A DNA stretch of 64,000 nucleotides, taken from contig NZ_PTJS01000001.1 in the NCBI RefSeq assembly GCF_002941025.1, positions 2,976,001 through 3,040,000 of the forward strand, read 5' to 3'. Origin of the DNA: Streptomyces sp. QL37. Its GTDB lineage: Bacteria; Actinomycetota; Actinomycetes; Streptomycetales; Streptomycetaceae. The position numbers and the translations under genes were made by a program. Numbering within the stretch: position 1 is the stretch's first letter; each line of letters begins with the position of its first letter. The notes beneath the pieces were generated by a model. That model saw nothing but the letters and a program-made list of their open reading frames with translations. It was not told the origin of the DNA and made no database searches. Shown piece by piece: positions 9,949 through 25,475 of this stretch.

Positions 9949-9971
9949 CCCTCCCCCTTTCACTAGGCGTG

Positions 9972-10241: not shown

Positions 10242-10335
10242 CACCTCCTGCCGGGTGGCTGTCCTTCCCGCCGCCGCGGGTGTGCCGCAAGGGTCCGTAC
10301 ACCTTTTCCACGAGAACGAGCGAACGGGGCGATCC

Positions 10336-12843
10336 ATGATTCTCACCGGGCCGGAAATCGAGAGAGAACGAACGAACGGCCGCATCACGATCGAGCCGTT
10401 CACGCCGGAGCAGGTGAATCCGAACAGCTACAACTTCCGTCTCGGCACCACGCTGCGCACCTACGCGAACATGCCGCTGGACGCCCGGCGGACCAACGAC
10501 TTCGAAGAGATCGAGATCTCCGACGACGGTTACGTCCTGGAGCCCGGCAGGCTCTATCTCGCGCACACCATCGAGGTGTTGGGAAGCGAGCACTACGCGC
10601 CCACCTTCGCGGCGCGCTCCTCGGTCGCCAGGCTCGGCCTCTTCATCAACCTCTCCGCGAGCCTGGGCGACATCGGGTACACCGGCCAGTGGACCCTGCA
10701 GCTGTACACGATGAACAGGGTCCGGGTGTATCCCGGCATCAGCATCGGCCAGATGATGTGGTGGCGGCCGCAGGGCGAGATCGTCCTCTACGACGGCAAG
10801 TACCAGGGATCGGCGGGCCCCCGCTCCAGCGACATCCACGTCGACTTCGACAAGCAGTTCGCCCGCCAGCGCTTCCCGGGGCTCGGCGCCAGCTTCGACC
10901 CCGACGAGGTGGGGCCCAAGTTCGCCCAGCTCGCCGCGTCCAGCCACGACTTCCGGGTGCCGGCCGCCTTCTGTGTACCCGCGGGTGAGTTCACCGACGC
11001 GCTCACCGACGCACAGAACGCGGCACTGGCCGACGCCTTCACCGATCTCAAGGCCACGGTCGGAGCCTTCTTCACCGACTCCGCGGCGAAGATCCAGAAG
11101 GTCGGTGCCGAGGTCCGGATGCCCGAGCAGGCCAGGAAGCTGCTGGCCGCACGGCTGGGCGAGATGTTCCCGCCGTCCGGTGGCGCGGAGGCCGAACTGG
11201 CCGTCCGCTCCTCGGGGCTGGACGAGGACACCGAGGGCTCCAGCCTCGCCGGGATCCACACGTCCGTCCTCGGGGTCACCGGTGTGGACGCCGCCGTCGA
11301 GGCCGTCGAGGCGTGCTGGCGCTCGCACTACGAGGCCCCGGCCGTCGCGGCCCGCATCCGGGCGGGCCGGTTCTCCCCCGCACCACGCCTCGCCGTCCTC
11401 GTGCAGCGGCTCGTCCGCCCGGACTTCGCCGGGGTGGCGTTCACCGGCCTCGACGGCGACGCCGGCCGTGTCACCGTCGAGTACGTCGAGGGGCTCGCCG
11501 ACGAGCTCGTGGCCGGCGTCGCCGTGCCCCGGCGTACCGACTCGGACGTCCTGGCCGCCGGGACCGGCCGGGACGCGGCCGAGCACGAGATGCTCCGTCA
11601 GGTCGTGGACCTCGTGCGCCGGCTGCGCGCGAGCCGCGGGCACGACGTGGATGTCGAGTGGGCCGCCGACACCGAAGGCGTTCACCTCGTGCAGGTCCGC
11701 CCGCTCACCGCGTCCCGCGAGGTGGCCCGCCGCTCCGCCGAGCCGGTCACCGAGGCGCACCGGCTCTACGCCGACGACCTCCCCGCCGGCTTCGGTCTGG
11801 GCGCGGTGGCCGCCGTGTACAGCGGGTACACCGCCAAGCGCGGGCCCGCGCACCGGCTGGCCCACGAGCACGGGGTGTCCACCGGCGCGGGCTGGGTTCT
11901 GCGCTTCAACGGCCTGGGCCTGCACGGGCACGAGGGCGCGGCGGCCGTGCGCGACATGCTCGCGGGCGGCACCGGGGAATGCGTCCTCGACTTCGGGGAG
12001 AACCTGCGGCAGATCGTGGTGCCCAAGGAGGAGGTGCCGCGCCAGCTCGCCGTGACCACCGGGGCCGCGGGGGACGGCACGGACCTGCACACGGTGATCG
12101 TGCGGGACTTCATCCGCGGCGAACTCGGCGTGATATCGCGGCGGACGGCCGCGGGAGGGCTGGTCGTCGAGTACACCGAGGAGGGCCTGATGGCCCTGAA
12201 CCGGGGAACGGCGGGCGGCGAGGCGATCGTCGTCGAGGACGTGGCGGCGGCTCTCGGCGGGGCGGGCGGGCCGGACTGGCCGGGCGCCGGCGCCGCCCTG
12301 CGCCCGCACCTCGGCGAACTCGCACGGTTCACGGCGGCCATGCACGCCGTGCACGGCCCCGTGACGCTGGAATGGGTCTTCGACGGGGGCGTCCTGTACT
12401 TCGTCGACCACTCGGTCCTCGGCGACGACGACGTGACGGTCGCGCACGGGGAGGTCTGCATCTCACCGGGTACCGCCCGGGGGCCGCTCCTGCGCCTCGA
12501 CGACGACGCCGTACTGCGGCGTCTCTCCATCGGTCCGGCCGTGTCCATCGACAAGTCCAAGGACGTCACCGAGCACGAGGGGCTGGGCCGGATCCTCGAC
12601 CTGGTCACCTCGTACGACGAGAAGCCCGTGATCAGCGCCGCACGGCCGTACGCGGTGCTCTCCGTCCTCATCGAGCACGTGGCCGGGTTCGTCTTCGACC
12701 AGGGCTCCGCCCTGGGGCACCTGGCGATCCTGCTGCGCGAGGCCGGGATTCCCGCGGTGACCGCCGACGGGATCGAGGGGGCCGAAGCAGTGATCAGTGA
12801 TGGCACGGTCGCGACGACCGGCCGCAAGGGAGAACGCGCATGA
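10336..12843 (+). CDS. dCTP-deaminase-like / PEP-synthase-like phosphotransferase fusion
   Basis: This 835-aa protein joins two enzyme folds. Residues 1-175 are a dCTP deaminase/dUTPase trimer fold: EPGRLYL, AARSSVARLGL (phosphate-binding Arg-Ser-Ser, 94-96), DIGYTG and YDGKYQGSAGPRSS. The position of the catalytic Glu (E138 in E. coli Dcd) is Gln122. Residues 200-460 are the ATP-binding domain of PEP synthase/pyruvate phosphate dikinase: VRSSGLDEDTEGSSLAGIHT, QRLVRPDFAGVAFTG, DVEWAADTEGVHLVQVRPLT. Residues 480-700 are a middle domain I cannot assign. Residues 705-830 look like the swivelling phosphohistidine domain, with His796 in GSALGHLAILLREAGIPAV. There is no PEP-binding barrel, so the order resembles rifampin phosphotransferase, which uses ATP to phosphorylate a small molecule through a His relay. 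The ATG lies 94 bases after the possible peptide ORF. First main gene of the region 3 operon. Confidence 0.88.
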   Translation: MILTGPEIERERTNGRITIEPFTPEQVNPNSYNFRLGTTLRTYANMPLDARRTNDFEEIEISDDGYVLEPGRLYLAHTIEVLGSEHYAPTFAARSSVARLGLFINLSASLGDIGYTGQWTLQLYTMNRVRVYPGISIGQMMWWRPQGEIVLYDGKYQGSAGPRSSDIHVDFDKQFARQRFPGLGASFDPDEVGPKFAQLAASSHDFRVPAAFCVPAGEFTDALTDAQNAALADAFTDLKATVGAFFTDSAAKIQKVGAEVRMPEQARKLLAARLGEMFPPSGGAEAELAVRSSGLDEDTEGSSLAGIHTSVLGVTGVDAAVEAVEACWRSHYEAPAVAARIRAGRFSPAPRLAVLVQRLVRPDFAGVAFTGLDGDAGRVTVEYVEGLADELVAGVAVPRRTDSDVLAAGTGRDAAEHEMLRQVVDLVRRLRASRGHDVDVEWAADTEGVHLVQVRPLTASREVARRSAEPVTEAHRLYADDLPAGFGLGAVAAVYSGYTAKRGPAHRLAHEHGVSTGAGWVLRFNGLGLHGHEGAAAVRDMLAGGTGECVLDFGENLRQIVVPKEEVPRQLAVTTGAAGDGTDLHTVIVRDFIRGELGVISRRTAAGGLVVEYTEEGLMALNRGTAGGEAIVVEDVAAALGGAGGPDWPGAGAALRPHLGELARFTAAMHAVHGPVTLEWVFDGGVLYFVDHSVLGDDDVTVAHGEVCISPGTARGPLLRLDDDAVLRRLSIGPAVSIDKSKDVTEHEGLGRILDLVTSYDEKPVISAARPYAVLSVLIEHVAGFVFDQGSALGHLAILLREAGIPAVTADGIEGAEAVISDGTVATTGRKGERA

Positions 12844-14093
12844 GCGACACCGTCACATCCGCCGCCCCGCCGGCCGGCCCCTCCCGCCGGCGGTCGTGGC
12901 TGGTCCTCGGCGGGCTGCACCTCCTCAACGGCACCGCCCCGCTCGCCGGCACCGACCCGGTGGTCGTCGTGGAGCTCGGTGCCCCGGTGGAGCATGCCTT
13001 CCCGAGCAACACGGTGATCCTGCGCTGGGACACACTCGGGCCGCTGGAACCAGCCGTCCGCACGGTCGACGGGACCCGCCGGCACACCACGAAGGCCCGG
13101 GGCGAGGAGCTCTTCCCCGGCATGCTGCCGGGGGCCGCCCTGCGTGCGGCGGTGTCCGAGGTCACCGGCGGACACACCGGGCCGCTCGTGCCGCTGTTCT
13201 ACGTCACCGCGGACGGCGACCGGGCCCATGTGCACAGCCAGATCCGCTTCCTGGCGGAGGACGCCTGCTTCATCCGGATCACCCCCGACCCGGTGCCCAC
13301 GGCCGGCGTCGAGGAGCTGGAGTGGCTGCCGGAGGCGGTCCGGCTGCACGCCGGACAGTTCCTCCTCCTCAACAACCACCAGCGGTACTACCGCAAGTGC
13401 TTCGACGGCCAGGAGCTGGAGTACAAGTACACGCTCAGCCCGCCGGTGGACATCTGGACGCTGACGGTCGAGCTGTACGGCAACCTGCTCGGGGGCGGGC
13501 TGCCCGGCTACGTCATGGAGTACCGGGACGAGTACCAGGCGTGGGACTACCTCAACCACCTCTTCGAGGTGACCGGCCCCACCGAGGCCGAGGCCGGCTA
13601 CGCCTCCTTCATCCCCACCACCGACGGAAAGCACCTCCTCAAGCGGAAGTGGTACGCCGAGGACACCTTCGACCGCCGGGAGAGCCACACGTACGGGCTG
13701 GACGTGACGGACGACGGCGGCTTCGAGCGGTACATCCGCGAGGAGCTGAAGGTGGAGGCCGTCCGCCTGCCGTCCTTCCGCCGCGTCCGCTACGACGTCA
13801 ACTTCGAGTCGGTGCGCACCGGACACGTCTACGGCGTCTTCTTCGACCACTGCAGTCTGGTCGAGGACCACGAGGTGACGCTCAACCAGTGCGAACTGGA
13901 GTATCTGCGCAGCCGGGTCGCCGTCCCGCCCGACGAGGCCGCGGTGCTGGCCGAGATGGACGAGATCGTGAGCTGGCTGGAGGCGTTCCTGCGCGAGCAC
14001 GGCCTCGACGACCGGCGCGGCTTCTACTCCAAGCGCACCTTCCTCAAGGACGCCGTCGCGGCCCGTCCCCGGCTCGCCCGGAAGGCCGGCTGA
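12840..14093 (+). CDS. CYTH-like (triphosphate tunnel) domain protein
   Basis: This 417-aa protein is coupled by ATGA to the fusion gene. I see no close family, but GQELEYKYTL at residues 190-199 carries the Glu-x-Glu-x-Lys signature of CYTH/triphosphate tunnel metalloenzymes (class IV adenylate cyclase, thiamine triphosphatase, inorganic triphosphatase). The expected basic and acidic strands follow: KHLLKRKWYAED (264-275), FRRVRYDV (313-320), FFDHCSLVEDHEVTL (334-348) and CELEYLRSR (351-359). The first 180 residues are extra and unassigned. The family binds and usually cleaves triphosphates inside a beta tunnel with divalent metal. Among nucleotide enzymes, a role on a nucleoside or polyphosphate intermediate is a reasonable inference. 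Confidence 0.65.
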   Translation: MSDTVTSAAPPAGPSRRRSWLVLGGLHLLNGTAPLAGTDPVVVVELGAPVEHAFPSNTVILRWDTLGPLEPAVRTVDGTRRHTTKARGEELFPGMLPGAALRAAVSEVTGGHTGPLVPLFYVTADGDRAHVHSQIRFLAEDACFIRITPDPVPTAGVEELEWLPEAVRLHAGQFLLLNNHQRYYRKCFDGQELEYKYTLSPPVDIWTLTVELYGNLLGGGLPGYVMEYRDEYQAWDYLNHLFEVTGPTEAEAGYASFIPTTDGKHLLKRKWYAEDTFDRRESHTYGLDVTDDGGFERYIREELKVEAVRLPSFRRVRYDVNFESVRTGHVYGVFFDHCSLVEDHEVTLNQCELEYLRSRVAVPPDEAAVLAEMDEIVSWLEAFLREHGLDDRRGFYSKRTFLKDAVAARPRLARKAG

Positions 14094-14875
14094 TGCCGGG
14101 CACCCCCGTGCGTGGCGTACTGCTCGACCTGGAGGGCACGCTCTACGCCCGGGGTGCGGTGATCGACGGGGCGGCCCGGGCGGTGGACGCACTGCGGGAC
14201 CTGGGGGTGGGGCTGCGTTTCCTGACCAACACCGACTCCAAACCTGCGGAGCGGATCCGGCGGGAGCTGGAGGGATACGGCCTGACGGTGGCGTCCGACG
14301 AGCTGTTCACCCCTGTCGTGGCGGCGGCCGGGCTGCTGACGGCGGCCGGTGCCCGCACCTATCCGCTCGTGTCGCGGGAGCTGCGCGAGGTGCTGCCCAC
14401 CCTGGCCGGGGAACCGCCGTACAGCCACGTGCTGATCGGCGACTGCCGGGACACGCTGGACTACGCCGCACTGGACGGGGCCTTCCGGGCCGTACGGGGC
14501 GGAGCCCGGCTGATCGCCCTGCAGACCGGCCGCTACTTCAAACGGGCCGACGGCGACCACCTGGACACCGGTGCGGTGGTCGCGGCCGTCACGTACGCCT
14601 CCGGGGCCGAGGCCAGGGTGCTGGGGAAACCCTCTGCCGACTTCTTCGCACTCGCGGCCGGCTCCCTGGACGTGCCGGCCGCGGAGTGCGTCGTGGTCGG
14701 TGACGACGCCACGACCGACATCGCGGGCGGCCGGGCCGCCGGCTTCCGCACCGTCCAGGTCCGCACCGGCAAGTACGAGGACCAGCGGGCGGAGGGGCTG
14801 ACGGGGCAGGCCTCCGCCGAGCTGGGCTCCGTGACCGAGCTGCCGCGGCTCCTGCGGGAGTGGGGCGTTGCATGA
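14093..14875 (+). CDS. HAD superfamily phosphatase, subfamily IIA (NagD/LHPP-like)
   Basis: This 260-aa haloacid-dehalogenase phosphatase has motif I LLDLEGTLY with nucleophile Asp12, motif II FLTNTDSK, motif III Lys in VLGKPSADFF and motif IV VVGDDATTDIAGG. The C2 cap between motifs II and III is the IIA type found in NagD, phosphoglycolate phosphatase and LHPP. The residue two after the nucleophile is Glu14 where most HAD phosphatases have the acid/base Asp, which may lower or alter activity. It starts one base before the end of the preceding stop and overlaps the next gene by ATGA. It probably removes phosphate from a pathway intermediate. Confidence 0.9.
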   Translation: MPGTPVRGVLLDLEGTLYARGAVIDGAARAVDALRDLGVGLRFLTNTDSKPAERIRRELEGYGLTVASDELFTPVVAAAGLLTAAGARTYPLVSRELREVLPTLAGEPPYSHVLIGDCRDTLDYAALDGAFRAVRGGARLIALQTGRYFKRADGDHLDTGAVVAAVTYASGAEARVLGKPSADFFALAAGSLDVPAAECVVVGDDATTDIAGGRAAGFRTVQVRTGKYEDQRAEGLTGQASAELGSVTELPRLLREWGVA

Positions 14876-16566
14876 CCGTCTACTGGGTGGTCTGGGACGC
14901 CGGGGCCCACTGGGTCGTGGACCGGCTGGAGCGTGAGGGCGCGCTGCCGTCCGTGACCCGGATGCGGCAGCGCGGTGTCTTCGCCGCGGCACGGCCGGCC
15001 CGCCCCAACTGCCAGACCCCGCCGTCCCTGGCCACACTGTTCACCGGCACCTGGCCGGCCGAGCATCAGGTCACCGGATTCACCGTGCCGGGCGCCGGGG
15101 ACGGCCTCGCCAGCCATGTCAGCGGATTCGCGCCGGGCTTCCCGGCCGCGCCGCCGGTGTGGGAGGCGATGTCCGAGAACGATCTGACGAGCGCGCTCGT
15201 CCACGCTCCCTGGGTCTTCGGCGCCGACGGCCGGGTCGGGCCGCACGTGGACAGCGCGGTGGAGGCCTACAGCGACCGGCTGACCCGGCCCGCACGGCTC
15301 GTCCTGGACCGCGGCCGGGAGACACACCGCTGGGACATCGGCCCGTACGAGGTGGCGGTCCGGGCCGAGGAGGGCCCGGACGCGTCGCAGCAGGTGCGGG
15401 TGACCGGGCACGAGGAGCAGCTGCTCCTCGTGCCCGGAGCGCCGTGGCGGCCGTTCGGGCTGGACCGCTACAACGGGACCTGGGTGCGGTGCGTCCGGGT
15501 GGACGGCCGGCTCGTGGTGGTGCACACGGGGATCTGGCGGACACGGACCGGCGGGCGCAACGCGAAGAGTCTGCACCGCCTCGCGCAGTGCCCCCCGTTC
15601 GCGGGCGAGGGCGTCGGGCCGCTCTACCGCCGGGCGGCGTTCGGGCCCCGGCTGGCCGAGGGCGGGGACGGCTCCGCCGAGGAGTTCTTCCTCTCCTCGG
15701 TGGAATGCGTCGCCCGTTCGTTCGGGGCCGCGGCCGATGCGGTGCTGGAGACGCACGACGCGGACCTGGTGGTCGTCTACCTGCCGATGACCGACGACGT
15801 GGGCCACGAGTTCCTGGGCTGGTGCGACGAGCGCAGCGCGGCGCACCGCCCCGACATCGCCGAGCGCATATGGTCGTACGTCCGGCGCTGCTACGTGTGG
15901 TCGGACGCCATCCTGGGGCAGGTGCTCGACGGGGCCCGCGAGGAGGACACCGTGGTCCTGGGGGCCGACCACGGCATGGTCGGCAGCAACCGTCTGGTGC
16001 ACCTCAACGACCAGCTCGTGCGGGCGGGACTGGCCGCGTCCGCCGCCGGCGGCGGACTGGACGTGGACAGTTCCCAGGTCTTCTACCACCCGGCGAACAA
16101 CGGCTCCCTGTGGGTCTCCGGGACCGCCGCCGGCGATCCCGTGCGGCTCCGCCACCTCATGGCGCGGGCGTGTGCGGTGCTCTCCTCGATCACCGACCCG
16201 GAGACGGGCGATCCGGTGGTGACCGCCTTCCTCGGCCCCGACGGCCGGCCGCTCACCGGCACACAGCCGGACAGCGAGGTGGTCTACGTGGCCCTCAGGG
16301 ACGACTACCAGCCGAGCGCCGAGCTGCTGGGTGAGGGCCCGGTGGTCCGGCGGGCCCCCAAACCCGGGGCCCATGTGGTCAACACCGGTGACAGCAGGCT
16401 CCACGCGGTCCACGCGGCGGTCGGCCCGGGGATCGCGCCCGGTACCCCGGCGGAACCCGTCGACAACACCTTCCCGGCCGCACTGGTGCTCGGCGGGCTG
16501 GGCCTGGGGCCCTCCGCCGAAACCCTCTACCGCACCGTCCCGTTCGCACCGACACACGAGAGGTGA
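14872..16566 (+). CDS. Alkaline-phosphatase-superfamily phosphodiesterase/nucleotide pyrophosphatase-like
   Basis: This 564-aa protein has the metal and nucleophile set of the NPP/phosphoglycerol-mutase group. Asp9 is in VVWDAG. NCQTPPSLATLFTGTWP has Thr49 as the likely nucleophile, followed by HQVTGF. MTDDVGHEF gives Asp308 and His312, GADHGM gives Asp366 and His367, and a final His lies in LHAVHAAVGPG. There is no signal peptide, unlike secreted NPPs, so it acts inside the cell. The family cleaves phosphodiesters, pyrophosphates or phosphonates. Within this operon it could hydrolyse a nucleotide or phosphodiester intermediate. It is coupled at both ends: ATGA upstream and a five-base gap downstream. 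Confidence 0.88.
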   Translation: MTVYWVVWDAGAHWVVDRLEREGALPSVTRMRQRGVFAAARPARPNCQTPPSLATLFTGTWPAEHQVTGFTVPGAGDGLASHVSGFAPGFPAAPPVWEAMSENDLTSALVHAPWVFGADGRVGPHVDSAVEAYSDRLTRPARLVLDRGRETHRWDIGPYEVAVRAEEGPDASQQVRVTGHEEQLLLVPGAPWRPFGLDRYNGTWVRCVRVDGRLVVVHTGIWRTRTGGRNAKSLHRLAQCPPFAGEGVGPLYRRAAFGPRLAEGGDGSAEEFFLSSVECVARSFGAAADAVLETHDADLVVVYLPMTDDVGHEFLGWCDERSAAHRPDIAERIWSYVRRCYVWSDAILGQVLDGAREEDTVVLGADHGMVGSNRLVHLNDQLVRAGLAASAAGGGLDVDSSQVFYHPANNGSLWVSGTAAGDPVRLRHLMARACAVLSSITDPETGDPVVTAFLGPDGRPLTGTQPDSEVVYVALRDDYQPSAELLGEGPVVRRAPKPGAHVVNTGDSRLHAVHAAVGPGIAPGTPAEPVDNTFPAALVLGGLGLGPSAETLYRTVPFAPTHER

Positions 16567-16571
16567 GGGCA

Positions 16572-17678
16572 ATGCCGTCCCGCTTTCCCCATGTCCTGTC
16601 CCCCGACGAGCTGACGGCCCGCCGTCACTCCCAGGTGACCGCCTTCCTGGCCGACCGTGACCTGGATCCGGAGTGGCTGTCCGGGCTGATGCGTCAGCAG
16701 GTCGGCGACGGGCTGCTGCTGCTGACGAGTTCACCCGTGCACGGACTGGCCAACCCCACCAGTGACCTGGACTTCATCCGGATCCAGCGGGAGGCCATCG
16801 ACGGCCCCCGGATATCCACCAAGATCTTCGAGCAGGGCCACCACCTGGAGGTCGTGTCCTTCAGCGAGGCCGAACTCGCCTCGAACCTCGGCGAACTGGA
16901 CCGGCTCGCCGCCCTCCCGGCCGAGCGGACCGTGGCCGGCTTCCGCGCCTGGGACAAGAAGCGCGAGCCACGCCGTAAGCAGACGGAGCGCATCGTCAAC
17001 GGCATCACGCTGGACGGCACGGCTCCGTATCTGGGGGCGCTGCCCTCCCTCAGCCGCATCTGGTGCCGGGCCGCCCTGCACACCGCGGTCGAGCAGGTCG
17101 TGCACACCACGCTGGCCGAGCGGGCCGGCGAGACACGCGGCCGGGTGGGCTACGCCTACAACGTGCTGCTGCACCTGATGGACGCGCTGCTCTCGCACCA
17201 GGGAGACGTCTACACCACCCGTAAGTGGTATGTGCTGCGCTGGACGAGGCTGATGGCCGAAGGCGGCCGGGACGACGACCACCTCCGCTCCGTCGCCCTG
17301 CGTCTGGAGGAGCTCCGCAAGGACGTCCACACCTTCCTCGGCCCGTCGATGGCCGGTGAGCCGCTGGCCGCACCGTTCACGGACATGGTCCTGGCCGCCG
17401 TACGCGCCACCGGGACGGGCGGTGGCGTCACGGTGGAGGTGGAGCCCACCGGCGGCGTGCACGGCTTCCTGCCCGGTGCCGCGATCGCCCTGGGAACGGG
17501 CGGCGGGGTGGTGCTCCCAGGGGACGGAGCCACGGACCTGCCGTTCACCGGCGCCCCGGTGGCTCTGGACGAGCCGGCAGGGCTCGGCGCGCACGCGGCC
17601 GCGACCCTGCTGAGGGCCCTGCGGGCGGGCGCGGCCCGGCTGCGGATCGGCTACCTCGGTGAGGAGGCCGGGCGATGA
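16572..17678 (+). CDS. Nucleotidyltransferase-fold protein
   Basis: This 368-aa protein has LLTSSPVHGLANPTSDLDFI (residues 50-69), which fits the G-S-x-x-x-G-x-x-x-x-S-D-x-D pattern of the DNA polymerase beta-like nucleotidyltransferase fold, with the first Gly replaced. Asp65 and Asp67 would bind the metal. The rest is mainly helical to residue 265, with a Gly-rich beta C terminus. I cannot name the family. I prefer the ATG at 16572 (GAGGTGA six bases upstream) to the GTG at 16563, which would overlap the previous stop. It ends in ATGA overlap with the next gene. It may transfer a nucleotidyl group to the pathway product or to a partner protein, but substrate and activity are unknown. Confidence 0.7.
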   Translation: MPSRFPHVLSPDELTARRHSQVTAFLADRDLDPEWLSGLMRQQVGDGLLLLTSSPVHGLANPTSDLDFIRIQREAIDGPRISTKIFEQGHHLEVVSFSEAELASNLGELDRLAALPAERTVAGFRAWDKKREPRRKQTERIVNGITLDGTAPYLGALPSLSRIWCRAALHTAVEQVVHTTLAERAGETRGRVGYAYNVLLHLMDALLSHQGDVYTTRKWYVLRWTRLMAEGGRDDDHLRSVALRLEELRKDVHTFLGPSMAGEPLAAPFTDMVLAAVRATGTGGGVTVEVEPTGGVHGFLPGAAIALGTGGGVVLPGDGATDLPFTGAPVALDEPAGLGAHAAATLLRALRAGAARLRIGYLGEEAGR

Positions 17679-18286: not shown

Positions 18287-18293
18287 GACCTTT

Positions 18294-18324
18294 CGTCCGG
18301 ATCAGGCCGGGCTTGATCCGGACG
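18294..18324 (+). terminator. Hairpin between the two blocks of region 3
   Basis: CGTCCGGATCA and TGATCCGGACG form a perfect 11-bp stem with a 9-base loop; imperfect pairing extends it to about 18287-18331. It starts one to eight bases after the stop of the preceding gene and no T-run follows. It is a likely attenuator or RNA-stabilising element that sets the ratio of the first block to the second block. Confidence 0.55.
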
Positions 18325-18386
18325 AGAGGCCCCAGTCACCGGACATCCCGTGGTCCTCGGACCGCCCACACGAGAGCGAGGTACAC

Positions 18387-18842: not shown

Positions 18843-19912
18843 GTGTCTACCTGAACTTCCTCCACACGACCGTACGGTTCGACGTGGCCGAGGACGCGGA
18901 GGACGCCTTCGGTCCCGTCCGCCGCTTCTTCCGGCACCTCCTCGGACCGGCCCCGGCCTGCGAGGTCACCTTCTCGGTCGACGTACGCTCCTACGACCCG
19001 GACACGGACGTGGCCCCCGAGGTGTGGGAGCTGCCGCAGTCCGTCATCCGGCGCAGCAACGCCGCCGAGTTCAACTTCGACGCGCACCGCGTGGACTCCG
19101 ACGGCCGGCACCGGTACGTCAACCGGGACACCCTGCTGGACGCCCCCGCCGACACCGCCAAGGACACCGCCTTCCTGGTGCGCGTCACGGAGCGGTCCAC
19201 GGTGCAGGTCCTCGACTTCGTACGCGATCTCGTCATCCGGCACGAGGAGAGCCTGGGCACCGTGGTGCTGCACGCCTCCGGGCTGCACCGGGACGGCGAC
19301 GCGGTGATCATCGCCGGGCCCAAGGGCGCGGGGAAGACCACCACGCTGCTCTCGGCCCTGCGCCGGCCGGGCTGGCGGTACTTCACGGGCGACAAGCTCT
19401 TCTGCACGGTCGAGGACGGGGAGGTGATCGTCCACCCGTGGCGCGACTACCCGTACGTGGGGGTCGGCACGATCCGCGCGGACCCGCGGCTGGAGCGGCT
19501 CGTCCGCGACGAGGTCGACCCGCTGGTCGACACGTACGACCCCGGGCACAAGATCCTCATCGACCCGGACGTCTTCGAGGCCTGGCTCGGCTCGGAGTTC
19601 ACGGCCGGGCCGAAGCGGCTGGCCGCGCTGCTGCTGCCGGAGGTCGTCCCCGGGGAGCCGCTGACCGTACGCCACGTGACGGACGACAACGAGCGCTGGG
19701 CCCACCTGAACAAGATCGTGGACCGCCAGTCCGACACCACCTTCTTCACCTGGCAGACCTATCTCGTCCCCGACTACGCGGCGTTCTACCAGGGCCTGGC
19801 CGGGCTGCGCGCCCCCCTCGCCCCGGTCGACATGGTGCGGCTGCGCGGCACCCTCGACGTCGACCCGGACGCCGTCCTGGGCCGCACCGCGCCGAAGGAG
19901 GACGTGCGATGA
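18839..19912 (+). CDS. HprK-like P-loop kinase/ATPase
   Basis: This 357-aa protein has a single P-loop, GPKGAGKTTT, at residues 160-169, preceded by VVLHASGLHRDGDAVIIA. That His-rich strand before the P-loop is characteristic of HPr kinase/phosphorylase-like proteins, including those in RiPP clusters. Downstream FTGDKLFC resembles the Ser/Asp-Asp strand that follows in that family. The N-terminal 150 residues form an alpha/beta domain specific to this type. Such kinases phosphorylate a Ser on a protein, a peptide, or a small molecule. It is coupled upstream to the SRPBCC gene and downstream to a second P-loop kinase, both by ATGA. Confidence 0.8.
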   Translation: MSVYLNFLHTTVRFDVAEDAEDAFGPVRRFFRHLLGPAPACEVTFSVDVRSYDPDTDVAPEVWELPQSVIRRSNAAEFNFDAHRVDSDGRHRYVNRDTLLDAPADTAKDTAFLVRVTERSTVQVLDFVRDLVIRHEESLGTVVLHASGLHRDGDAVIIAGPKGAGKTTTLLSALRRPGWRYFTGDKLFCTVEDGEVIVHPWRDYPYVGVGTIRADPRLERLVRDEVDPLVDTYDPGHKILIDPDVFEAWLGSEFTAGPKRLAALLLPEVVPGEPLTVRHVTDDNERWAHLNKIVDRQSDTTFFTWQTYLVPDYAAFYQGLAGLRAPLAPVDMVRLRGTLDVDPDAVLGRTAPKEDVR

Positions 19913-20472
19913 CTGCCGAGACCCGCCCTGGCCTCCGGATATCCGTGGTGGGCCTGGCCGGTGCGGGCAAGTCCACCTGCGCCTCGCTCATCGAGGAGTA
20001 CGCGCTTGACAAGGGCCTGCCCCACGCCCGGATCAAGCTCGCCGCGCCCCTTTACGATCTCCAGGCACAGGTGTACCGGCGGGCCGGTGCTCCCCTCCGG
20101 GAGGGCGCTCAGGACCAGGTCCTGATGGAGGCGCTCGCCGGGGCGATGCGGCGGATCCGCCCCGACTCGCTCGCCGCGGACTTCGCCTCCCGGCTCTCCG
20201 GGGCCGACACCACCGGTCTGGTCGTCAACGACGATCTGCGCGACCCGCATGTGGACGCCCCGGCCCTGCGCGCACAGGGCTTCCGCGTCCTGCGCGTCAC
20301 CTGCGACGAGGAGCTGCGCCAGGTCAGGCTGGCCGGCCGGGGGGACCCGTCCCGTGCCGACGGCTCGACCCGCGAGATCGACCTGATCACTCCGGACGCG
20401 GTGATCGACAACAGCGCGGACCTGGACACCTACAGGTCGGCCGTCCACGCGCTGCTGGGGAGCTGGCTGTGA
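19909..20472 (+). CDS. Small P-loop (deoxy)nucleotide kinase-like protein
   Basis: This 187-aa protein has P-loop GLAGAGKST at residues 15-23, then IKLAAPLYDLQAQVYRRAG, VVNDDLRDPH in the position of the nucleotide-monophosphate contact, a LID-like VRLAGRGD, and the end motif VIDNSADLDTY common in dNMP kinase and AAA_17-type proteins. The size fits the NMP/dNMP kinase class. It probably moves a phosphate from ATP to a nucleotide or nucleotide analogue. Directly after it (GTGA overlap) comes a dCTP-deaminase paralogue, so the pair suggests handling of a deoxycytidine or related nucleotide. The exact substrate is not visible. Confidence 0.82.
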   Translation: MTAETRPGLRISVVGLAGAGKSTCASLIEEYALDKGLPHARIKLAAPLYDLQAQVYRRAGAPLREGAQDQVLMEALAGAMRRIRPDSLAADFASRLSGADTTGLVVNDDLRDPHVDAPALRAQGFRVLRVTCDEELRQVRLAGRGDPSRADGSTREIDLITPDAVIDNSADLDTYRSAVHALLGSWL

Positions 20473-20996
20473 TCCTGAGCGGGCCGGAGATCCTGGCCGA
20501 GACGCGGGCCGGACGGATCCACATCGACGACTTCACCCCGGAGCGCCTGGAGCCGAACAGCTACGGCTTCCGGCTCGCCGAGGAGATCCTCTGGTATGAG
20601 CAGGACGTGATCGACTGCTTCGAGCCGCCGAAGCCCGCGCAGGCGACGATCGGCCCCGAGGGCATGATCCTCGAACCCGGGCGCCTCTATCTCGGCGGCA
20701 CCATGGAGGCCATGGGCAGCCCGCACTACGCGGCCACCCTGTACGCCTGCCGGTCCACCTCGACCCTCGGCATCTGGATCCAGTTCTCCGCCCCGCTCGG
20801 GCACAGCGGGGCAATGTTCCCGTGGACGCTGGAGATGAAGGTCGCCCACCCGGTGCGGGTCTATGCCGGGATGGTCATCGGCAAGCTCGCCTTCTGGTCG
20901 ATGCAGGGCGAACCCATCGGCTACGACGGCAAGTACACGGACTCCACCTCCGCCGTGGCCTCCCGTCTGAGTCTGGACTTCCATGTCACAGACTGA
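20469..20996 (+). CDS. dCTP deaminase-like protein, stand-alone paralogue
   Basis: This 175-aa protein of the dCTP deaminase/dUTPase fold is clearly paralogous to the first domain of the fusion at 10.3 kb. Both begin MIL-SGPEI or MILTGPEI, share EPNSYGFRL/NPNSYNFRL and EPGRLYL, and end with YDGKY. Here the expected catalytic Glu122 is kept (WTLEM), but the usual RSS motif is CRSTSTLGI and the ID-P-G turn is GHSG, so the active site still departs from classical Dcd. The housekeeping dCTP deaminase in E. coli is a stand-alone metabolic enzyme; this one is embedded in a cluster. It starts with GTG in GTGA overlap and ends 14 bases inside the antiporter gene. Confidence 0.88.
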   Translation: MILSGPEILAETRAGRIHIDDFTPERLEPNSYGFRLAEEILWYEQDVIDCFEPPKPAQATIGPEGMILEPGRLYLGGTMEAMGSPHYAATLYACRSTSTLGIWIQFSAPLGHSGAMFPWTLEMKVAHPVRVYAGMVIGKLAFWSMQGEPIGYDGKYTDSTSAVASRLSLDFHVTD

Positions 20997-22350
20997 ACTG
21001 TTCCGGGTCCTGGCCGCCATCGCCCTGCTGCTGGTGGCGGCGCACGCCATGGGACGGCTCTTCGCCCGCTTCCGGCAGCCTCCGGTGATCGGGGAGATCC
21101 TCGGTGGGCTGCTGCTGGGGCCGACGGTGCTGGGCCAGCTGCTGCCCCGGGCGGAGGCCTGGCTGTTCCCCTCCGAGGGCCCGGTGGCCTTCGGTCCGTC
21201 GCTGGTCTACCAGCTCGGGATGCTCCTGCTGATGTTCACGGCGGGCGCGGAGATGCGTACGGTCTTCTCCCGGCGGGACGGCCGGTCCGTCGCACTGATC
21301 GCGCTGGCCGGGATGGCGGTGCCCTTCGCGATCGGCCTGCTGGCCGTGCGGGCGATCGACATCGGGAGCCTCCTGGGGCCCGCGGACGACGTGACGGCGC
21401 TGACCCTGATCCTGACCTGCGCGATCGCCGTGACCAGCATCCCGGTGATCTCCCGGATCATGCTCGATCTCGGCATCATCCGGACCCGGTTCGCCCGGAC
21501 CGTGCTGTCGGTCGCGGTGGTCGAGGACGTGATCCTGAACGTCATCATCTCCGTGGCGCTCGGCATGGTCGCGGGCAGCAAGGAGCCCGGCTTCGGTCTC
21601 GCCCACGCCCTGGGCGTCACCTCGGCCGGCGCGTCCGCCGCCTACCACTCGGTGGCGTCGGTGGCCTTCTTCGGGCTGATGGCGCTGGTGGCCGTGGTGA
21701 TACGCCGGCGGCCGTGGGCAGGGACCGCGCCGAAACAGCCCGGCGGAGGTACGGCGGGCGGACGTCTGGACACGGTCGCCGTGCGGATGGCCGTACTCCT
21801 GGCGGTGTCGGCGAGTTGCGTGTTCCTGGGCGTCGCCCCCATGTTCGGCGCGTTCGTCGTGGGCCTGCTCTCCGGCCTGACGGCGCGGAGCCCGCAGAGC
21901 GACTCCCTGGGCCAGGTACGCGGGTTCGCCGCCGGCTTCTTCGTCCCCGTCTACTTCGCGACGGTTGGCCTCAAGCTGGACCTGGTGCACTCCTTCGACC
22001 TGTGGTTCACCGCGGGTTTCATCCTGCTGGCCTGTGCGGCGAAGGCCCTCAGCGCCTACGCCGGGGCCCGGCTCGCGAAACGGCCGAAGCCCGAATCGCT
22101 CGATCTCGCGGTCGCCCTGAACGCCCGGGGCGGGCCCGGCATCGTCCTGGCCACGGTCTCCTTCGACGCGGGCATCGTCAACGCCTCGTTCTTCACCACC
22201 CTGGTGCTCACCGCGATCGTCACCTCGCAGATCGCGGGCTGGTGGCTCGAACGGGCCGTCTCCCGTGGGGCGTTCGTCACGGACGAGGCGTTCGCACCTC
22301 GGCAGCAGGACGAGAGTGCCAGTGTGCTGGTGAAGGCCGAGGGCGGCTGA
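20983..22350 (+). CDS. Cation/proton antiporter, CPA2 (KefB/NapA) family
   Basis: This 455-aa integral membrane protein has about 12-13 hydrophobic segments. Family features are FRQPPVIGEILGGLLLGPT near the N terminus, TAGAEM in the third segment, and the ALTLILTCAIAVTSIPVISR and VVEDVILNVIISVALG segments, where an acidic residue lies in the ion site. There is no C-terminal TrkA-N domain; the 40-residue tail is short and polar. It exchanges Na+ or K+ for protons. The gene overlaps the deaminase by 14 bases, so it belongs to the same transcript, possibly giving self-protection or pH/ion balance during product export. A role as a true product exporter cannot be excluded. Confidence 0.9.
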   Translation: MSQTELFRVLAAIALLLVAAHAMGRLFARFRQPPVIGEILGGLLLGPTVLGQLLPRAEAWLFPSEGPVAFGPSLVYQLGMLLLMFTAGAEMRTVFSRRDGRSVALIALAGMAVPFAIGLLAVRAIDIGSLLGPADDVTALTLILTCAIAVTSIPVISRIMLDLGIIRTRFARTVLSVAVVEDVILNVIISVALGMVAGSKEPGFGLAHALGVTSAGASAAYHSVASVAFFGLMALVAVVIRRRPWAGTAPKQPGGGTAGGRLDTVAVRMAVLLAVSASCVFLGVAPMFGAFVVGLLSGLTARSPQSDSLGQVRGFAAGFFVPVYFATVGLKLDLVHSFDLWFTAGFILLACAAKALSAYAGARLAKRPKPESLDLAVALNARGGPGIVLATVSFDAGIVNASFFTTLVLTAIVTSQIAGWWLERAVSRGAFVTDEAFAPRQQDESASVLVKAEGG

Positions 22351-22404
22351 CCCCCGCACCGGCGCCCGCCCCCCGGCTGTTTCCCCCCGCATACCAGTGA
22401 AGGA

Positions 22405-23673
22405 ATGTCTCGCGTGAACGCCCCTCAAGGCCCCCGTCCGGTCGTCGCGATAGTCGACGCCTACTCCACCGCCAGCCATCTGGCACCGCTGTTCCGCGCC
22501 CAGGGATTCGACTGCGTGCACGTACAGAGCCTGGAGCGGCCGCCGGCCGCCTTCGCCTCATCCTTCCGGCCCGACGACTTCTCCGCGACCGTCGTGCACA
22601 CCGGCGACACGGCCCGGACCCTGGCCGCCCTCGCGCCGTACGCCCCCGTAGCCCTGCTGCCCGGTGCGGAGATCGGGGTCGAGCTGGCCGACGTCCTCAG
22701 TGAGGCGCTGGGGCTGCGGACCAACGGCACCACGCTCAGCAACGCCCGCCGGGACAAGTTCCACATGGTGGAGACCGTCAAGGCCGCCGGGGTCCCGGCC
22801 GCCGACCAGATCCTGGCCACCGACCTGGACGCGCTGCTGGACTGGTACGGCGACACCGGGCGGACCGTCGTCCTCAAGCCGGTCCGCAGCGCGCTGAACG
22901 ACGGGGTGTCCTTCTGCGGCACCCGCGACGCCGTAAGGGCGTCCTTCGAGGCGCTCGTCGGCGCCGAGAGCGCGCTCGGGCTGCGCAACGACGCCGTGGT
23001 CGCCCAGGAGTACCTCGTGGGGGCCGAGTACTACGTCAACACGGTCAGCCTGGACGGCGAGCACTACGTGTGCGACGTGTGGAAGACGCAGCACCTCGGC
23101 GTGAACGGCGTCCGCGACCTGCTCGGCGGGTCGTCCCTGATGGTGCGCCGCGGCCCGGAGCAGGATCTGCTGACGGAGTACGCCTTCTCGGTGCTGGACG
23201 CGCTCGGCATCCGCAACGGCCCGGCCCACACCGAGCTGAAGCTGACCCCCGAGGGCCCCCGGCTGGTCGAGACCGGCGCCCGGGTCTGCGGGGCCATGCT
23301 CCCGGTGCTGACCGGTGCGGCGATCGGCGAGAGCCAGCTCGAGTGGACGGTGCGGGCGTACACGGACCCCGAGGCGTTCGAGGCCCTCCGGCACACCGAC
23401 TACGAGGTCGCCCGGCACGCCACCTGCGTCAACATGGTCGCGCCCGACGGGGGCAAGCTCCTCGACTACCCGAAGATGGCGGAGCTGCGGGCGCTGGAGA
23501 GCTTCCACGACGTCCTGTTGAAGGTACGGCCCGGCGAAGAGTTGTCCCGCACGGTGAACGACATCACCTACCCGATGCTCGTACACCTCCTGCACGAGGT
23601 GGAAGGCGTCGTCGTCCACGATTACATGACGGCGCGCTACCTCGACGGGGAGGGCTTCTACGATGTCGTCTGA
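22405..23673 (+). CDS. ATP-grasp superfamily ligase
   Basis: This 422-aa ligase is of the carboxylate-amine type. Residues 1-115 form the pre-ATP-grasp domain (VVAIVDAYSTASHLAPLF, VALLPGAEIGVELADVL). The ATP-grasp part has the KF-M entry (ARRDKFHMVETVKAAGVP), a Lys in VVLKPVRSALNDGVSF, QEYLVGAEYYVN and the metal-binding HTELKLTPEGPRLVETGAR; the last motif has Glu-Thr-Gly-Ala where Glu-Ile-Asn is common. It joins a carboxylate to an amine or other nucleophile through an acyl phosphate. The annotated ATG lies directly against the GAAGGA ribosome site, so the in-frame GTG at 22414, nine bases from that site, is a likely real start. It overlaps the exporter gene by 11 bases. Confidence 0.9.
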   Translation: MSRVNAPQGPRPVVAIVDAYSTASHLAPLFRAQGFDCVHVQSLERPPAAFASSFRPDDFSATVVHTGDTARTLAALAPYAPVALLPGAEIGVELADVLSEALGLRTNGTTLSNARRDKFHMVETVKAAGVPAADQILATDLDALLDWYGDTGRTVVLKPVRSALNDGVSFCGTRDAVRASFEALVGAESALGLRNDAVVAQEYLVGAEYYVNTVSLDGEHYVCDVWKTQHLGVNGVRDLLGGSSLMVRRGPEQDLLTEYAFSVLDALGIRNGPAHTELKLTPEGPRLVETGARVCGAMLPVLTGAAIGESQLEWTVRAYTDPEAFEALRHTDYEVARHATCVNMVAPDGGKLLDYPKMAELRALESFHDVLLKVRPGEELSRTVNDITYPMLVHLLHEVEGVVVHDYMTARYLDGEGFYDVV

Positions 23674-24643
23674 CCGCCGCCGCCTGGCCCAGGCCGCCGG
23701 CACGTTGCTGGTGCTGGGCTACTGCGTCATCAACTCCACCAAGTCGGTGTTCGAGGGCGCACTCGTCCAGGACCTCTCACCGGAGTTCATCGCCTTCAAC
23801 TCCTTCGTGGTGGCGCAGGCCTTCTACTTCTTCACCCTGCGGGACAAGCGGGGCCTGTGGGCCGCTGTCAGGCGCAGTCTGCCGGACGTGGTGATGCTCA
23901 ACGTCTCCACCGCGGTCTGCTGGATCGCGGTGCTGTACGCCTTCACCGTCCTGGAGCCGGCCATGGCCAACTCGGTGATCATCGGACTGGGGCCGGCCAT
24001 CACCATCGCGCTCGGCTTCAAGCTCCGGCCCGGCACCCGGGCGCTCCCGCTCGAACTGGCCGCGGCCGGCGCGATGCTGGCCGCGATGGCGTACCTGCTG
24101 GTCATGGCGTCCGGCGGCGGGTCGGCCATCGGGGACGTACCAGCCGGGGAGCTGGCCTTCGGGGTCGTGATGTGCGTCCTGACCTCCGTCTCCCTGTCGG
24201 GCGTGACCTACTACACGAAGCGGCTCGGCGACGCGGGGATGTCCGTGCGGCAGATGATGGCCTCGCGGTTCGTGGCCCTGATCGTCTCGACCTTCGTCAT
24301 CCTGCTGGTGCGCGACAGCGTCGGCGCGTACTCCCTCGACAACGTGGGCGCGATCCTCGCGATCAGCCTCGTCGGGGTGATCATCTCGCTGTACCTGCTC
24401 CAGCAGGGCATCGTACGGACCGAGCCGATCACGGTGTCGATGCTGTTCGGGACGAACCTGCTGATCACCTACGCCGTGCAGTTCGCCGACCCGAGGCTCC
24501 ACCAGTCGCAGGGCACTCTCTACGGCCTCCTCGCGATCTCCCTCGCCATGTGCCTGGGCACCTGGGCGCGCTGGCGGGCCGACCGGCGGAAGGCGGACGA
24601 ACCCGCGCCCGGCCCGTCGGCCCGGACGGAGGCCAGGACGTGA
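23663..24643 (+). CDS. EamA/DMT family exporter
   Basis: This 326-aa drug/metabolite transporter has about ten hydrophobic segments in two repeats of five, ending in a cytoplasmic basic tail. It is divergent from the EamA protein at 33 kb. The first helix contains polar residues (YCVINSTKSVFEG), which suggests a specialised substrate. Translation starts 11 bases inside the ATP-grasp gene and the stop overlaps the phosphoesterase gene (GTGA). Its position at the end of the operon makes it the likely product exporter. Confidence 0.88.
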   Translation: MSSDRRRLAQAAGTLLVLGYCVINSTKSVFEGALVQDLSPEFIAFNSFVVAQAFYFFTLRDKRGLWAAVRRSLPDVVMLNVSTAVCWIAVLYAFTVLEPAMANSVIIGLGPAITIALGFKLRPGTRALPLELAAAGAMLAAMAYLLVMASGGGSAIGDVPAGELAFGVVMCVLTSVSLSGVTYYTKRLGDAGMSVRQMMASRFVALIVSTFVILLVRDSVGAYSLDNVGAILAISLVGVIISLYLLQQGIVRTEPITVSMLFGTNLLITYAVQFADPRLHQSQGTLYGLLAISLAMCLGTWARWRADRRKADEPAPGPSARTEART

Positions 24644-25392
24644 CGGTCCTGGCCCACCTCAGCGACCTGCACCTGGACGGCACCGAGGAGACCGCCGACC
24701 GCGCCCGCCGGGCCGTCTCCCACCTCACCGGGCTGCCCGGCACGGTCGACGCCACGCTGGTCACCGGGGACATCACCGACCGGGGCAGGGCGGCGGAGTA
24801 CCGGCAGGCGCGCGATGTCCTCGCCCCGCTGTACGAGCGCGGCCCCGTGCTGCTCTGCCCCGGCAACCACGACTCCCGCCCGGAGTACCGGCAGGTGCTG
24901 CTCGGCGGGAGCGGCACGGCTCCGGTCAACGAGGTCCGGGCCGTCGGACCGGACGGGGCCCGGGTCCTGATGTGCGACTCGTCGGTGCCCGGCCGGCCGG
25001 AGGGCCTACTGGAACCGGAGACGCTGGAGTGGCTGGACGACACGCTCGCCGCCGCCCCCGGCCGTCCGGCCTTCGTCGCCTTCCACCACCCGCCCGCGCC
25101 GCTCGGCCTGCCGTACATCGACCGCATCGGGCTGCACGGACCGGACGCCCTGGCGAAGGTCCTGGCACGTCACCCGCAGGTGGTCGCCGTGCTCTGCGGC
25201 CACGCGCACACGGCGGCGGCGACCACCTTCGCCGGCCGCCCGCTGCTCTGCGCCCCAGGCATCGTGTCGTCCGCGCTCATGCCCTGGGAACAGGGCCCGG
25301 ACTCCTCCTGGAAGACCCACGCCGCGCCGCCCTCGCTCGTCTTCCACCTCTACGAGGAGGGAAGACTGACGAGCCATGTCCGCGTGGTGTGA
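24640..25392 (+). CDS. Calcineurin-like metallophosphoesterase (CpdA-like)
   Basis: This 250-aa enzyme has the complete class III phosphodiesterase metal set: AHLSDLHLDG (Asp9, His11), LVTGDITDRG, PGNHDSRPEY, FHHPPAP and CGHAHT. It is related to CpdA/Icc cyclic-nucleotide phosphodiesterases. There is no signal peptide. It is the last gene of region 3, coupled by GTGA to the exporter. With the HAD and alkaline-phosphatase-type enzymes it is the third phosphate-removing enzyme in the operon. Confidence 0.9.
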   Translation: MTVLAHLSDLHLDGTEETADRARRAVSHLTGLPGTVDATLVTGDITDRGRAAEYRQARDVLAPLYERGPVLLCPGNHDSRPEYRQVLLGGSGTAPVNEVRAVGPDGARVLMCDSSVPGRPEGLLEPETLEWLDDTLAAAPGRPAFVAFHHPPAPLGLPYIDRIGLHGPDALAKVLARHPQVVAVLCGHAHTAAATTFAGRPLLCAPGIVSSALMPWEQGPDSSWKTHAAPPSLVFHLYEEGRLTSHVRVV

Positions 25393-25453
25393 CCCCACAC
25401 CGAGGGCATCGGCCACAGGACGCCCACCCGGAGCCCGCGCACGCCGGAGCGCG

Positions 25454-25475
25454 ACGGTCCGGTCGAGCGGACCGT
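25454..25475. terminator. Hairpin after region 3
   Basis: ACGGTCCG and CGGACCGT form a perfect 8-bp stem with a 6-base loop. It sits 61 bases after the phosphoesterase stop and 71 bases before the end of the convergent glycosyltransferase gene, consistent with a shared terminator. Confidence 0.5.

What the first reader, a model, noticed from the sequence alone, without database searches (positions are those of the whole stretch)
10336..25392. Fifteen-gene operon built from phosphoryl-transfer and nucleotide enzymes, matching no pathway I know
Seen: about 15 kb of + strand genes, most joined by 1-14 base overlaps. At least nine encode proteins of nucleotide or phosphate chemistry: dCTP-deaminase/PEP-synthase fusion, CYTH, HAD, alkaline-phosphatase type, nucleotidyltransferase fold, HprK-like kinase, small P-loop kinase, second deaminase and calcineurin-like phosphoesterase. 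An ATP-grasp ligase, an SRPBCC protein, an EamA exporter and an antiporter complete it. No PKS, NRPS or terpene genes are present. Inference: a biosynthetic or signalling system for a phosphorylated or nucleotide-derived small molecule, with kinases building and three phosphatases trimming it. An anti-phage or stress nucleotide-depletion role is the main alternative, but the exporter and neighbouring SARP favour a secreted product.
Basis: partly seen in the sequence, partly recalled or inferred. Interest (0 to 1): 0.92.

Follow-up and report, generated by a model that had tools for sequence, protein, structure and literature searches.

The report
Conserved operon for unusual phosphorus-nitrogen metabolite
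A 14-gene operon shared by scattered soil actinobacteria looks like the production line for an unknown small molecule, probably one with rare phosphorus-nitrogen bonds built with the help of the nucleotide CTP, and it carries an odd pair of enzymes that have each lost a different half of their catalytic machinery.

Summary
In detail: 14 (not 15) co-directional genes at 10336-25392, mostly overlapping. They stay together: ten core genes keep their order in 15 of 15 'type I' loci from four actinobacterial genera (one cut short by its contig end); three 'type II' loci keep nine of them, rearranged.

New: the two 'dCTP deaminases' are a complementary degenerate pair. One keeps the Glu138-position residue but lost Asp128; the other is the reverse. 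This held in 12 of 12 pairs examined, two of them rhizobial; a g9-like kinase is nearby in 10. dNTP depletion is therefore unlikely.

DCD pair + PPDK-like kinase + HAD + ATP-grasp recurs, by published annotation, in the phaseolotoxin cluster. One type II relative adds two ornithine carbamoyltransferases, an ArgD-like aminotransferase and an arginine-hydroxylase-like protein. Five of 18 loci carry a CTP synthase gene.

Best reading (0.5): biosynthesis of a P-N-bonded metabolite through cytidine-nucleotide-linked chemistry, like phaseolotoxin in logic, perhaps like sulphostin. The product is unproven, no sulfur-transfer gene was recognised, and no protein comparison with the Pht cluster was made.

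The parts
10336..12843 (+). g1: DCD domain (DCD-B type, Glu to Gln) fused to a PPDK/PEP-synthase/Rph-type dikinase with the PEP-utilizer His domain
   Evidence: Pfam PF22769, PF01326, PF00391; His in the PEP-utilizer domain kept in 14 of 14 sequences; Gln at the Glu138 position
12840..14093 (+). g2: two-part protein, C-terminal CYTH / triphosphate-tunnel metalloenzyme
14093..14875 (+). g3: HAD-IIA (NagD/LHPP-like) phosphatase
   Evidence: PF13242, PF13344; TIGR01458 161.8 bits, below its cut-off 175.95
14872..16566 (+). g4: type I phosphodiesterase / nucleotide pyrophosphatase family (alternative start 14860)
   Evidence: PF01663 E 1.6e-19; fused to g5 in 5 of 18 loci
16563..17678 (+). g5: DUF6001, kanamycin-type nucleotidyltransferase fold (alternative start 16572)
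17675..18286 (+). g6: DUF6031, unknown function (alternative start 17714)
   Evidence: PF19496 E 2.7e-80; fused to DUF6001 in P0066
18387..18842 (+). g7: SRPBCC (polyketide_cyc) protein
   Evidence: PF03364
18839..19912 (+). g8: HprK-related P-loop kinase
   Evidence: TIGR04352 E 1e-9, 37.9 bits against a cut-off of 200
19909..20472 (+). g9: small P-loop (nucleotide-kinase-like) kinase
   Evidence: AAA_18 E 8e-5, below cut-off; homologues beside DCD pairs; fused to g8 in L028
20469..20996 (+). g10: DCD-A type protein (keeps Glu, Asp to His)
   Evidence: PF22769 E 8.9e-25
20983..22350 (+). g11: CPA2-type cation/proton antiporter
   Evidence: PF00999; TIGR00932 below cut-off
22405..23673 (+). 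g12: ATP-grasp ligase, DdaF / L-amino-acid-ligase-like
   Evidence: PF13535; PRK07206 over cut-off, DdaF 211 bits below cut-off; PDB 30vh 'L-amino acid ligase' E 8.1e-65 over residues 9-412
23663..24643 (+). g13: EamA-family transporter, probable exporter
   Evidence: PF00892
24640..25392 (+). g14: calcineurin-like metallophosphoesterase
   Evidence: PF00149; PRK11148 below cut-off
8911..9732 (-). Divergent LuxR-type regulator, probably pathway-specific (5' end uncertain)
   Evidence: PF00196; relatives in 11 of 18 loci, divergently upstream of g1 in 8 of them
7683..8801 (-). Serine hydrolase (beta-lactamase family), possible accessory gene
   Evidence: PF00144; relatives in 4 of 18 loci

Best explanation
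The operon makes and exports a small molecule with one or more phosphorus-nitrogen bonds, using a cytidine nucleotide as carrier. Proposed course: (1) g1, a dikinase of the PEP-synthase/rifampin-phosphotransferase type, phosphorylates an amide or amine nitrogen through its phospho-His; (2) the nucleotidyltransferase g5 caps the phosphoramidate with a nucleotide, probably CMP from CTP; (3) the phosphodiesterase g4, fused to g5 in some relatives, displaces the nucleotide, handing the group to the next amine or releasing it; (4) the triphosphate-tunnel enzyme g2 and the kinases g8 and g9 make or consume polyphosphorylated intermediates; (5) the split DCD pair (g1 N-terminus plus g10) binds, and may hydrolyse, the pyrimidine nucleotide and so tethers the chemistry; (6) the ATP-grasp ligase g12 forms an amide or lactam and g13 exports. 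Shown: gene content, conserved order, the folds of g2 and g5, the reciprocal loss of DCD residues, natural fusions, extra CTP synthase genes. Inferred: every reaction, the substrate and the product.
For: Ten-gene order conserved in 15 of 15 type I loci. By published annotation the phaseolotoxin cluster also has two dCTP deaminases, a PPDK-like protein, a HAD hydrolase and ATP-grasp ligases; its PhtL is needed for toxin but not for the peptide scaffold and is postulated to form the N-P bond. The type II relative L012/L056 adds two OTCases over the TIGR00658 cut-off, an acetylornithine-transaminase-like enzyme and a PF00487 protein whose only NCBIfam hit is an arginine hydroxylase, below cut-off. 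The Campylobacter P-N pathway runs from N-phospho-glutamine to a cytidine diphosphoramidate, and type II loci L030-L032 carry a peptidase C26 glutaminase-family gene. A CTP synthase gene lies in 5 of 18 clusters and is a second copy in both such genomes checked. Nucleotidyltransferase fold of g5, fused to phosphodiesterase g4 in 5 of 18 loci.
Against: No protein of the operon was recognised as a sulfotransferase, PAPS-forming or other sulfur-transfer enzyme. No OTCase, ArgD-like aminotransferase, desaturase-family or amidinotransferase gene among the 14; the window genome has 2 PF02729 genes, neither in the window. No glutaminase-family gene among the 14. Split DCD pairs also occur in plasmid clusters without a PPDK-like gene in the stretch fetched, so the pair is not specific to P-N chemistry. 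An OTCase beyond the usual two is not rare in the genus (3 of 7 other genomes).
Confidence: 0.5

Rival explanations
1. A pyrimidine nucleoside or nucleotide antibiotic: the DCD pair, kinase g9 and g2 reshape a (deoxy)cytidine or uridine triphosphate, and the final product keeps the nucleoside, perhaps joined to an amino acid by g12.
For: DCD pairs, usually with a g9-like kinase, recur in plasmid clusters that also hold glycosyltransferase, methyltransferase, cytidine deaminase or UTP-glucose-1-phosphate uridylyltransferase genes; a g2 paralogue sits in a cluster that looks like 7-deazaguanine nucleotide synthesis; CTP synthase genes in 5 of 18 loci.
Against: No glycosyltransferase, phosphorylase or nucleoside-modifying enzyme among the 14 genes; does not explain why an N-phosphorylating type of dikinase is fused to the DCD.
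Confidence: 0.25
2. An O-phosphorylated (not P-N) metabolite or phosphopeptide: g1 and g8 phosphorylate hydroxyls, as rifampin phosphotransferase does, and the phosphatases trim protecting phosphates.
For: The best solved matches of the g1 kinase part include 5fbs and 5hv2 (deposited as 'phosphoenolpyruvate synthase'; recalled to be rifampin phosphotransferases); the rifampin phosphotransferase model scores 100 bits, cut-off 999. HAD, phosphodiesterase and metallophosphoesterase are present.
Against: Does not explain the DCD pair, the CTP synthase genes or the shared content with Pht.
Confidence: 0.2
3. Nucleotide depletion in defence or stress: the two DCD proteins destroy dCTP.
For: Two DCD domains and several phosphatases.
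Against: Each DCD lacks one catalytic residue in all 22 sequences aligned; no PADLOC match for the 9 proteins tested; ligase and exporter genes belong to the conserved set.
Confidence: 0.05

Closest known systems
Phaseolotoxin (Pht) cluster of Pseudomonas syringae pv. phaseolicola
   Same: By annotation: two dCTP-deaminase genes next to a PPDK-like gene, a HAD hydrolase, ATP-grasp ligases (PMC3927611 Table 2 and PMC4530439, passages seen). Type II relatives also have a desaturase-family gene and a class III aminotransferase; one has OTCases.
   Different: In the window the DCD is fused to the PPDK; DUF6001, DUF6031, phosphodiesterase, CYTH, HprK-like, SRPBCC and EamA genes have no counterpart named in that table; no argK, amtA, phtS, phtF or desI counterpart among the 14 genes. 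Protein sequences were not compared.
Campylobacter O-methyl phosphoramidate capsule pathway
   Same: Logic: kinase N-phosphorylates an amide, then a cytidine diphosphoramidate is formed and phosphorylated (PMC6429109 passages). That its first kinase is PEP-synthase-like and that a glutaminase follows is recalled.
   Different: Other gene set; no DCD, CYTH or phosphodiesterase known to me there (recalled).
Sulphostin (Streptomyces sp. MK251-43F3)
   Same: A Streptomyces phosphosulfamate with a likely ornithine precursor (PMC11968843 and PMC9113183 passages).
   Different: Its gene cluster was not known in 2021 and none was found in my searches; any link is conjecture.
dCTP deaminase / bifunctional DCD-dUTPase
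   Same: Fold family of g10 and of the g1 N-terminus.
   Different: Each lacks one of the two catalytic residues.

Membership tests
Phaseolotoxin-type (Pht) cluster | Two DCD genes and a PPDK-like gene | tested here: met
   g1 and g10; Pht side by published annotation only
Phaseolotoxin-type (Pht) cluster | HAD hydrolase and ATP-grasp ligase | tested here: met
   g3, g12; Pht side
Phaseolotoxin-type (Pht) cluster | OTCase resistance gene, ArgD-like aminotransferase, desaturase-family genes, amidinotransferase, APS-kinase-like gene | tested here: not met
   None is among the 14 genes; three of the five kinds occur in relative L012
Phaseolotoxin-type (Pht) cluster | Homology of the individual proteins to Pht proteins | not tested
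Phosphosulfamate biosynthesis (sulphostin type) | Product with a sulfodiaminophosphinyl group | not testable with these tools
   No metabolite data; no sulfur-transfer gene recognised in the operon
dCTP deaminase | Catalytic Glu and motif-III Asp in one chain | tested here: not met
   g1 Asp/Gln and g10 His/Glu in 22 of 22 sequences; solved Dcd chains shown have both
CYTH / triphosphate tunnel metalloenzyme | Tunnel fold and ExExK motif | tested here: met
Kanamycin-type nucleotidyltransferase fold | Fold and paired catalytic Asp | tested here: met
   g5; D68 and D70 invariant in 24 of 24; that this is the catalytic motif is recalled
PEP-synthase / Rph-type dikinase | ATP-binding domain and phospho-carrier His | tested here: met
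   g1:
Campylobacter phosphoramidate pathway | Glutaminase that frees phosphoramidate | tested here: not met
   No glutaminase family among the 14 genes; a peptidase C26 gene in type II loci only
Known anti-phage systems (PADLOC) | Match to a described defence protein | tested here: not met
   0 of 9 proteins tested match at E 0.001; 5 of the 14 were not submitted

The most novel reading that the evidence does not exclude
A new biosynthetic logic for phosphorus-nitrogen metabolites: an obligate hetero-oligomer of two half-inactivated dCTP-deaminase paralogues, one fused to an N-phosphorylating dikinase, holds a cytidine nucleotide on which phosphoramidate groups are built, activated and handed over by a coupled nucleotidyltransferase-phosphodiesterase. 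The same split DCD + kinase module has been recruited into several otherwise different clusters in Actinomycetota and rhizobia.
Probability: 0.22. Interest if true: 0.88.

Novelty: new variant of a known kind. Interest (0 to 1): 0.75.

Why it matters
P-N natural products are few, and how phosphosulfamates such as sulphostin and phaseolotoxin get their P-N bonds is poorly understood (PMC4530439 passage; PMC9113183 passage). If the best reading is right, this operon gives a compact gene set in soil actinomycetes in which that chemistry can be tested enzyme by enzyme. The reciprocal loss of catalytic residues in paired DCD proteins, seen in 12 of 12 pairs from two phyla, is an unexpected evolutionary pattern and a concrete prediction of hetero-oligomers. 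The work also places two families of unknown function (DUF6001, DUF6031) in a pathway and gives DUF6001 a predicted fold.

Tried and rejected
Defence system: PADLOC scan of 9 of the 14 proteins gave nothing. Known, named cluster: full-text searches for DUF6001/DUF6031/PF19464/PF19496 (0 papers), dCTP deaminase or CYTH with cluster terms, phosphosulfamate and sulphostin and phaseolotoxin with Streptomyces / dCTP deaminase / phosphoramidate listed no report of this gene set; only the open-licence part of PMC is searched. The glutamine kinase and CDP-N kinase papers are not held. No Rfam match or tRNA in the window; no promoter-like and one weak minus-strand terminator-like site at 9700-26000. 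Profiles of g2, g5, g8 and g9 found no convincing sequence relative in the PDB; fold comparison settled g2 (C-terminal part) and g5 only, while the N-terminal half of g2, g6 and g8 remain unassigned. g9 has no match in phages; DUF6001 has none in plasmids. An OTCase beyond two as a general marker was rejected: 3 of 7 genomes other than G014 also have more than two PF02729 genes. DUF6031 was found in 1 of 396 genomes of a phylum-wide sample, the window's own; DUF6001 passed its cut-off in 1 of 394 of a class-wide sample, again the window's own, with two weaker matches.

Rows dropped before counts: 12 of 392 genomes match DUF6001 at E 0.001; 6 of these matches are short (20-25 bits, one just over the cut-off) and were not counted, leaving 6 full-length. 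Of 14 plasmid records, 13 were fetched; H14 (same length as H13) was not. Eleven of the 13 hold a DCD pair; L050 and L075 hold single DCDs. The lone A-type DCD at L045 1103 and the kinase-only L076 are not among the 12 pairs. Type I and type II operons count as one pair in the 12, and the pairs are related by descent, so 12 is not 12 independent events. Searches listed only 120 of 182 and 120 of 207 hits.
Full report
OBSERVATION. The window is 2976001-3040000 of an 8.77-Mb contig, GC 0.69-0.75. Fourteen + strand genes run from 10336 to 25392; 11 of 13 junctions overlap by 1-14 bases with the starts chosen here, with gaps at 18287-18386 and 22351-22404. Domains come from Pfam and NCBIfam. Upstream lie a divergent LuxR-type regulator, a beta-lactamase-family hydrolase and a SARP with BTAD domain.

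CONSERVATION. DUF6001 has 74 homologues in the large protein set and occurs full length in 6 of 392 genomes of the genus. One scan of named genomes gave 18 loci. In 15 of 15 type I loci (L015-L029: Streptomyces, Kitasatospora, Micromonospora, Nonomuraea) the order is g1 to g10, L020 ending after g8; of these 15, g11 is seen in 13, g12 in 13 (in L026 upstream of g1), g13 in 9 and g14 in 12. In three type II loci (L030-L032) the order is g1-g2-g4-g8-g9-g10, a desaturase-family gene, g5, g6, an aminotransferase, g7 and a reductase-family gene. A second type II cluster of the genome of L032 (L012 + L056) also has g3. Natural fusions: g4-g5 in L020, L022, L026, L027, L029 and g8-g9 in L028; DUF6001-DUF6031 in P0066. 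Against L015 every gene has dN/dS 0.20-0.42, and the DCD part of g1 only 0.08, so the degenerate DCD is strongly maintained.

ACCESSORY GENES. A CTP synthase gene lies between g11 and g12 in L016, L019, L022, L023 and L028 (5 of 18; Pfam checked on L016). Of ten genomes searched, the two whose contigs match L016 and L019 (G642, G718) have two intact copies; the other eight have one, the window genome with two short extra matches beside it. ATP-grasp genes of another group (c15) occur in L023, L024, L026, L027 and L028. L030-L032 have a peptidase C26 gene (Pfam checked on L030). L012 has, about 5 kb beyond the last core genes, two ornithine carbamoyltransferases over the TIGR00658 cut-off; its aminotransferase is nearest to acetylornithine transaminase and its PF00487 protein has one NCBIfam hit, the guanitoxin arginine hydroxylase GntB, below cut-off. 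Against a simple resistance reading, more than two PF02729 genes are found in 3 of 7 other genomes searched.

SPLIT DCD PAIR. In the solved dCTP deaminases shown one chain carries both a Glu (138 in the E. coli enzyme, numbering recalled) and an Asp (128). In trimeric dUTPase, replacing the motif-III Asp by Asn stops catalysis but not binding, and the active sites lie between subunits (PMC4827122 passages). In the operon the g1 DCD keeps Asp but has Gln for Glu, and g10 keeps Glu but has His for Asp, in 22 of 22 sequences aligned. A plasmid search gave 14 records; 13 were fetched and 11 of them hold an adjacent or near-adjacent DCD pair. With the operon this makes 12 pairs, and all 12 show the same reciprocal loss (DCD-A: Glu with His/Asn/Gln; DCD-B: Asp with Gln, Met in L069), while the two single DCDs keep both residues. 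A g9-like kinase lies within about 2 kb in 10 of the 12; L047 and L069 lack one. The pairs come from Actinomycetota and from Rhizobium (two records). They are related by descent, so this is a strong pattern, not 12 independent events.

WHAT IT RESEMBLES. PMC3927611 Table 2 (passage seen) lists for the phaseolotoxin cluster: argK OTCase, phtF ornithine aminotransferase, phtH and desI desaturases, phtJ and phtK dCTP deaminases, phtL PPDK-like, phtP HAD, amtA amidinotransferase, phtS adenylylsulfate kinase, phtU L-amino acid ligase and several hypothetical proteins. PhtQ and PhtU are ATP-grasp ligases, and phtL deletion stops the toxin but not the peptide scaffold (PMC4530439 passages); PhtL is postulated to act in N-P bond formation (PMC11278893 passage). 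The window shares DCD x2, PPDK-like, HAD and ATP-grasp; the L012/L056 relative adds OTCase, aminotransferase and desaturase-family genes. The Campylobacter capsule pathway N-phosphorylates glutamine and passes through a cytidine diphosphoramidate (PMC6429109 passages). Together these suggest P-N chemistry on a cytidine nucleotide. Membership in the Pht family is not claimed: several of its genes are missing from the window and protein homology was not tested.

MECHANISM. Most likely (0.5): g1 phosphorylates a nitrogen; g5 caps the product with a nucleotide; g4 transfers or releases the group; g2, g8 and g9 handle polyphosphorylated intermediates; the DCD pair holds the nucleotide; g12 closes an amide or lactam; g13 exports. 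Every reaction is inferred. Sulphostin is the obvious named candidate because it is a Streptomyces phosphosulfamate whose biosynthesis was unknown in 2021 (PMC9113183 passage), but nothing recognised in the operon transfers sulfate, so I would give that particular product no more than about 0.15.

AGAINST. DCD pairs occur in other clusters without a PPDK-like gene in the stretch fetched, for instance with glycosyltransferases, so the pair may serve a more general nucleotide step; a nucleoside product is the main rival (0.25). A plain O-phosphorylated product (0.2) and nucleotide depletion (0.05) are less likely. Among the hits listed for g1, g2 and g5 no name from Pseudomonas appears, but the first two lists were cut at 120 and many rows carry no name.

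VERDICT. A real, conserved and apparently undescribed biosynthetic operon, a new variant of a known kind with one unexpected protein-level feature. Interest 0.75.

Noticed in passing
L005 8817-9899 (window genome C1:1358699-1359892) and L051-L055: A second g2-like CYTH gene lies in a cluster seen in six genomes with genes that by eye look like QueD, QueE, GTP cyclohydrolase I, a thymidylate-kinase-like protein, a methyltransferase and several NUDIX proteins: perhaps a 7-deazaguanine nucleotide pathway (families not checked by profile).
   Followed up: partly
L045-L049, L069-L074: Plasmids of actinomycetes and two Rhizobium species carry DCD-A/DCD-B pairs, mostly with a g9-like kinase, among glycosyltransferase, methyltransferase or NUDIX genes.
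   Followed up: partly
L030-L032, downstream of c18: Type II loci continue, mostly with short overlaps, into the peptidase C26 gene and an alpha/beta-hydrolase gene (MetX-like by eye); L031 and L032 also have a Cys/Met-metabolism PLP enzyme. Possible clue to a methionine-type amino acid part.
   Followed up: no
L018 15774-16112: A 113-aa reading frame between g11 and g12 begins like the CTP synthase of other loci; possibly a deletion remnant (by eye).
   Followed up: no
L017 16861-17249: g14 aligns as two adjacent pieces covering about half of it, so it may be broken in this genome.
   Followed up: no
G014 contigs C79 and C274 (L013/L032 and L012/L056): One genome carries two different type II clusters.
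   Followed up: partly
window 25547-30891, minus strand: Downstream neighbours: a family 2 glycosyltransferase with TarS linker domain, then a sugar-isomerase-like TIM barrel, DUF993 and an oxidoreductase; probably unrelated.
   Followed up: no
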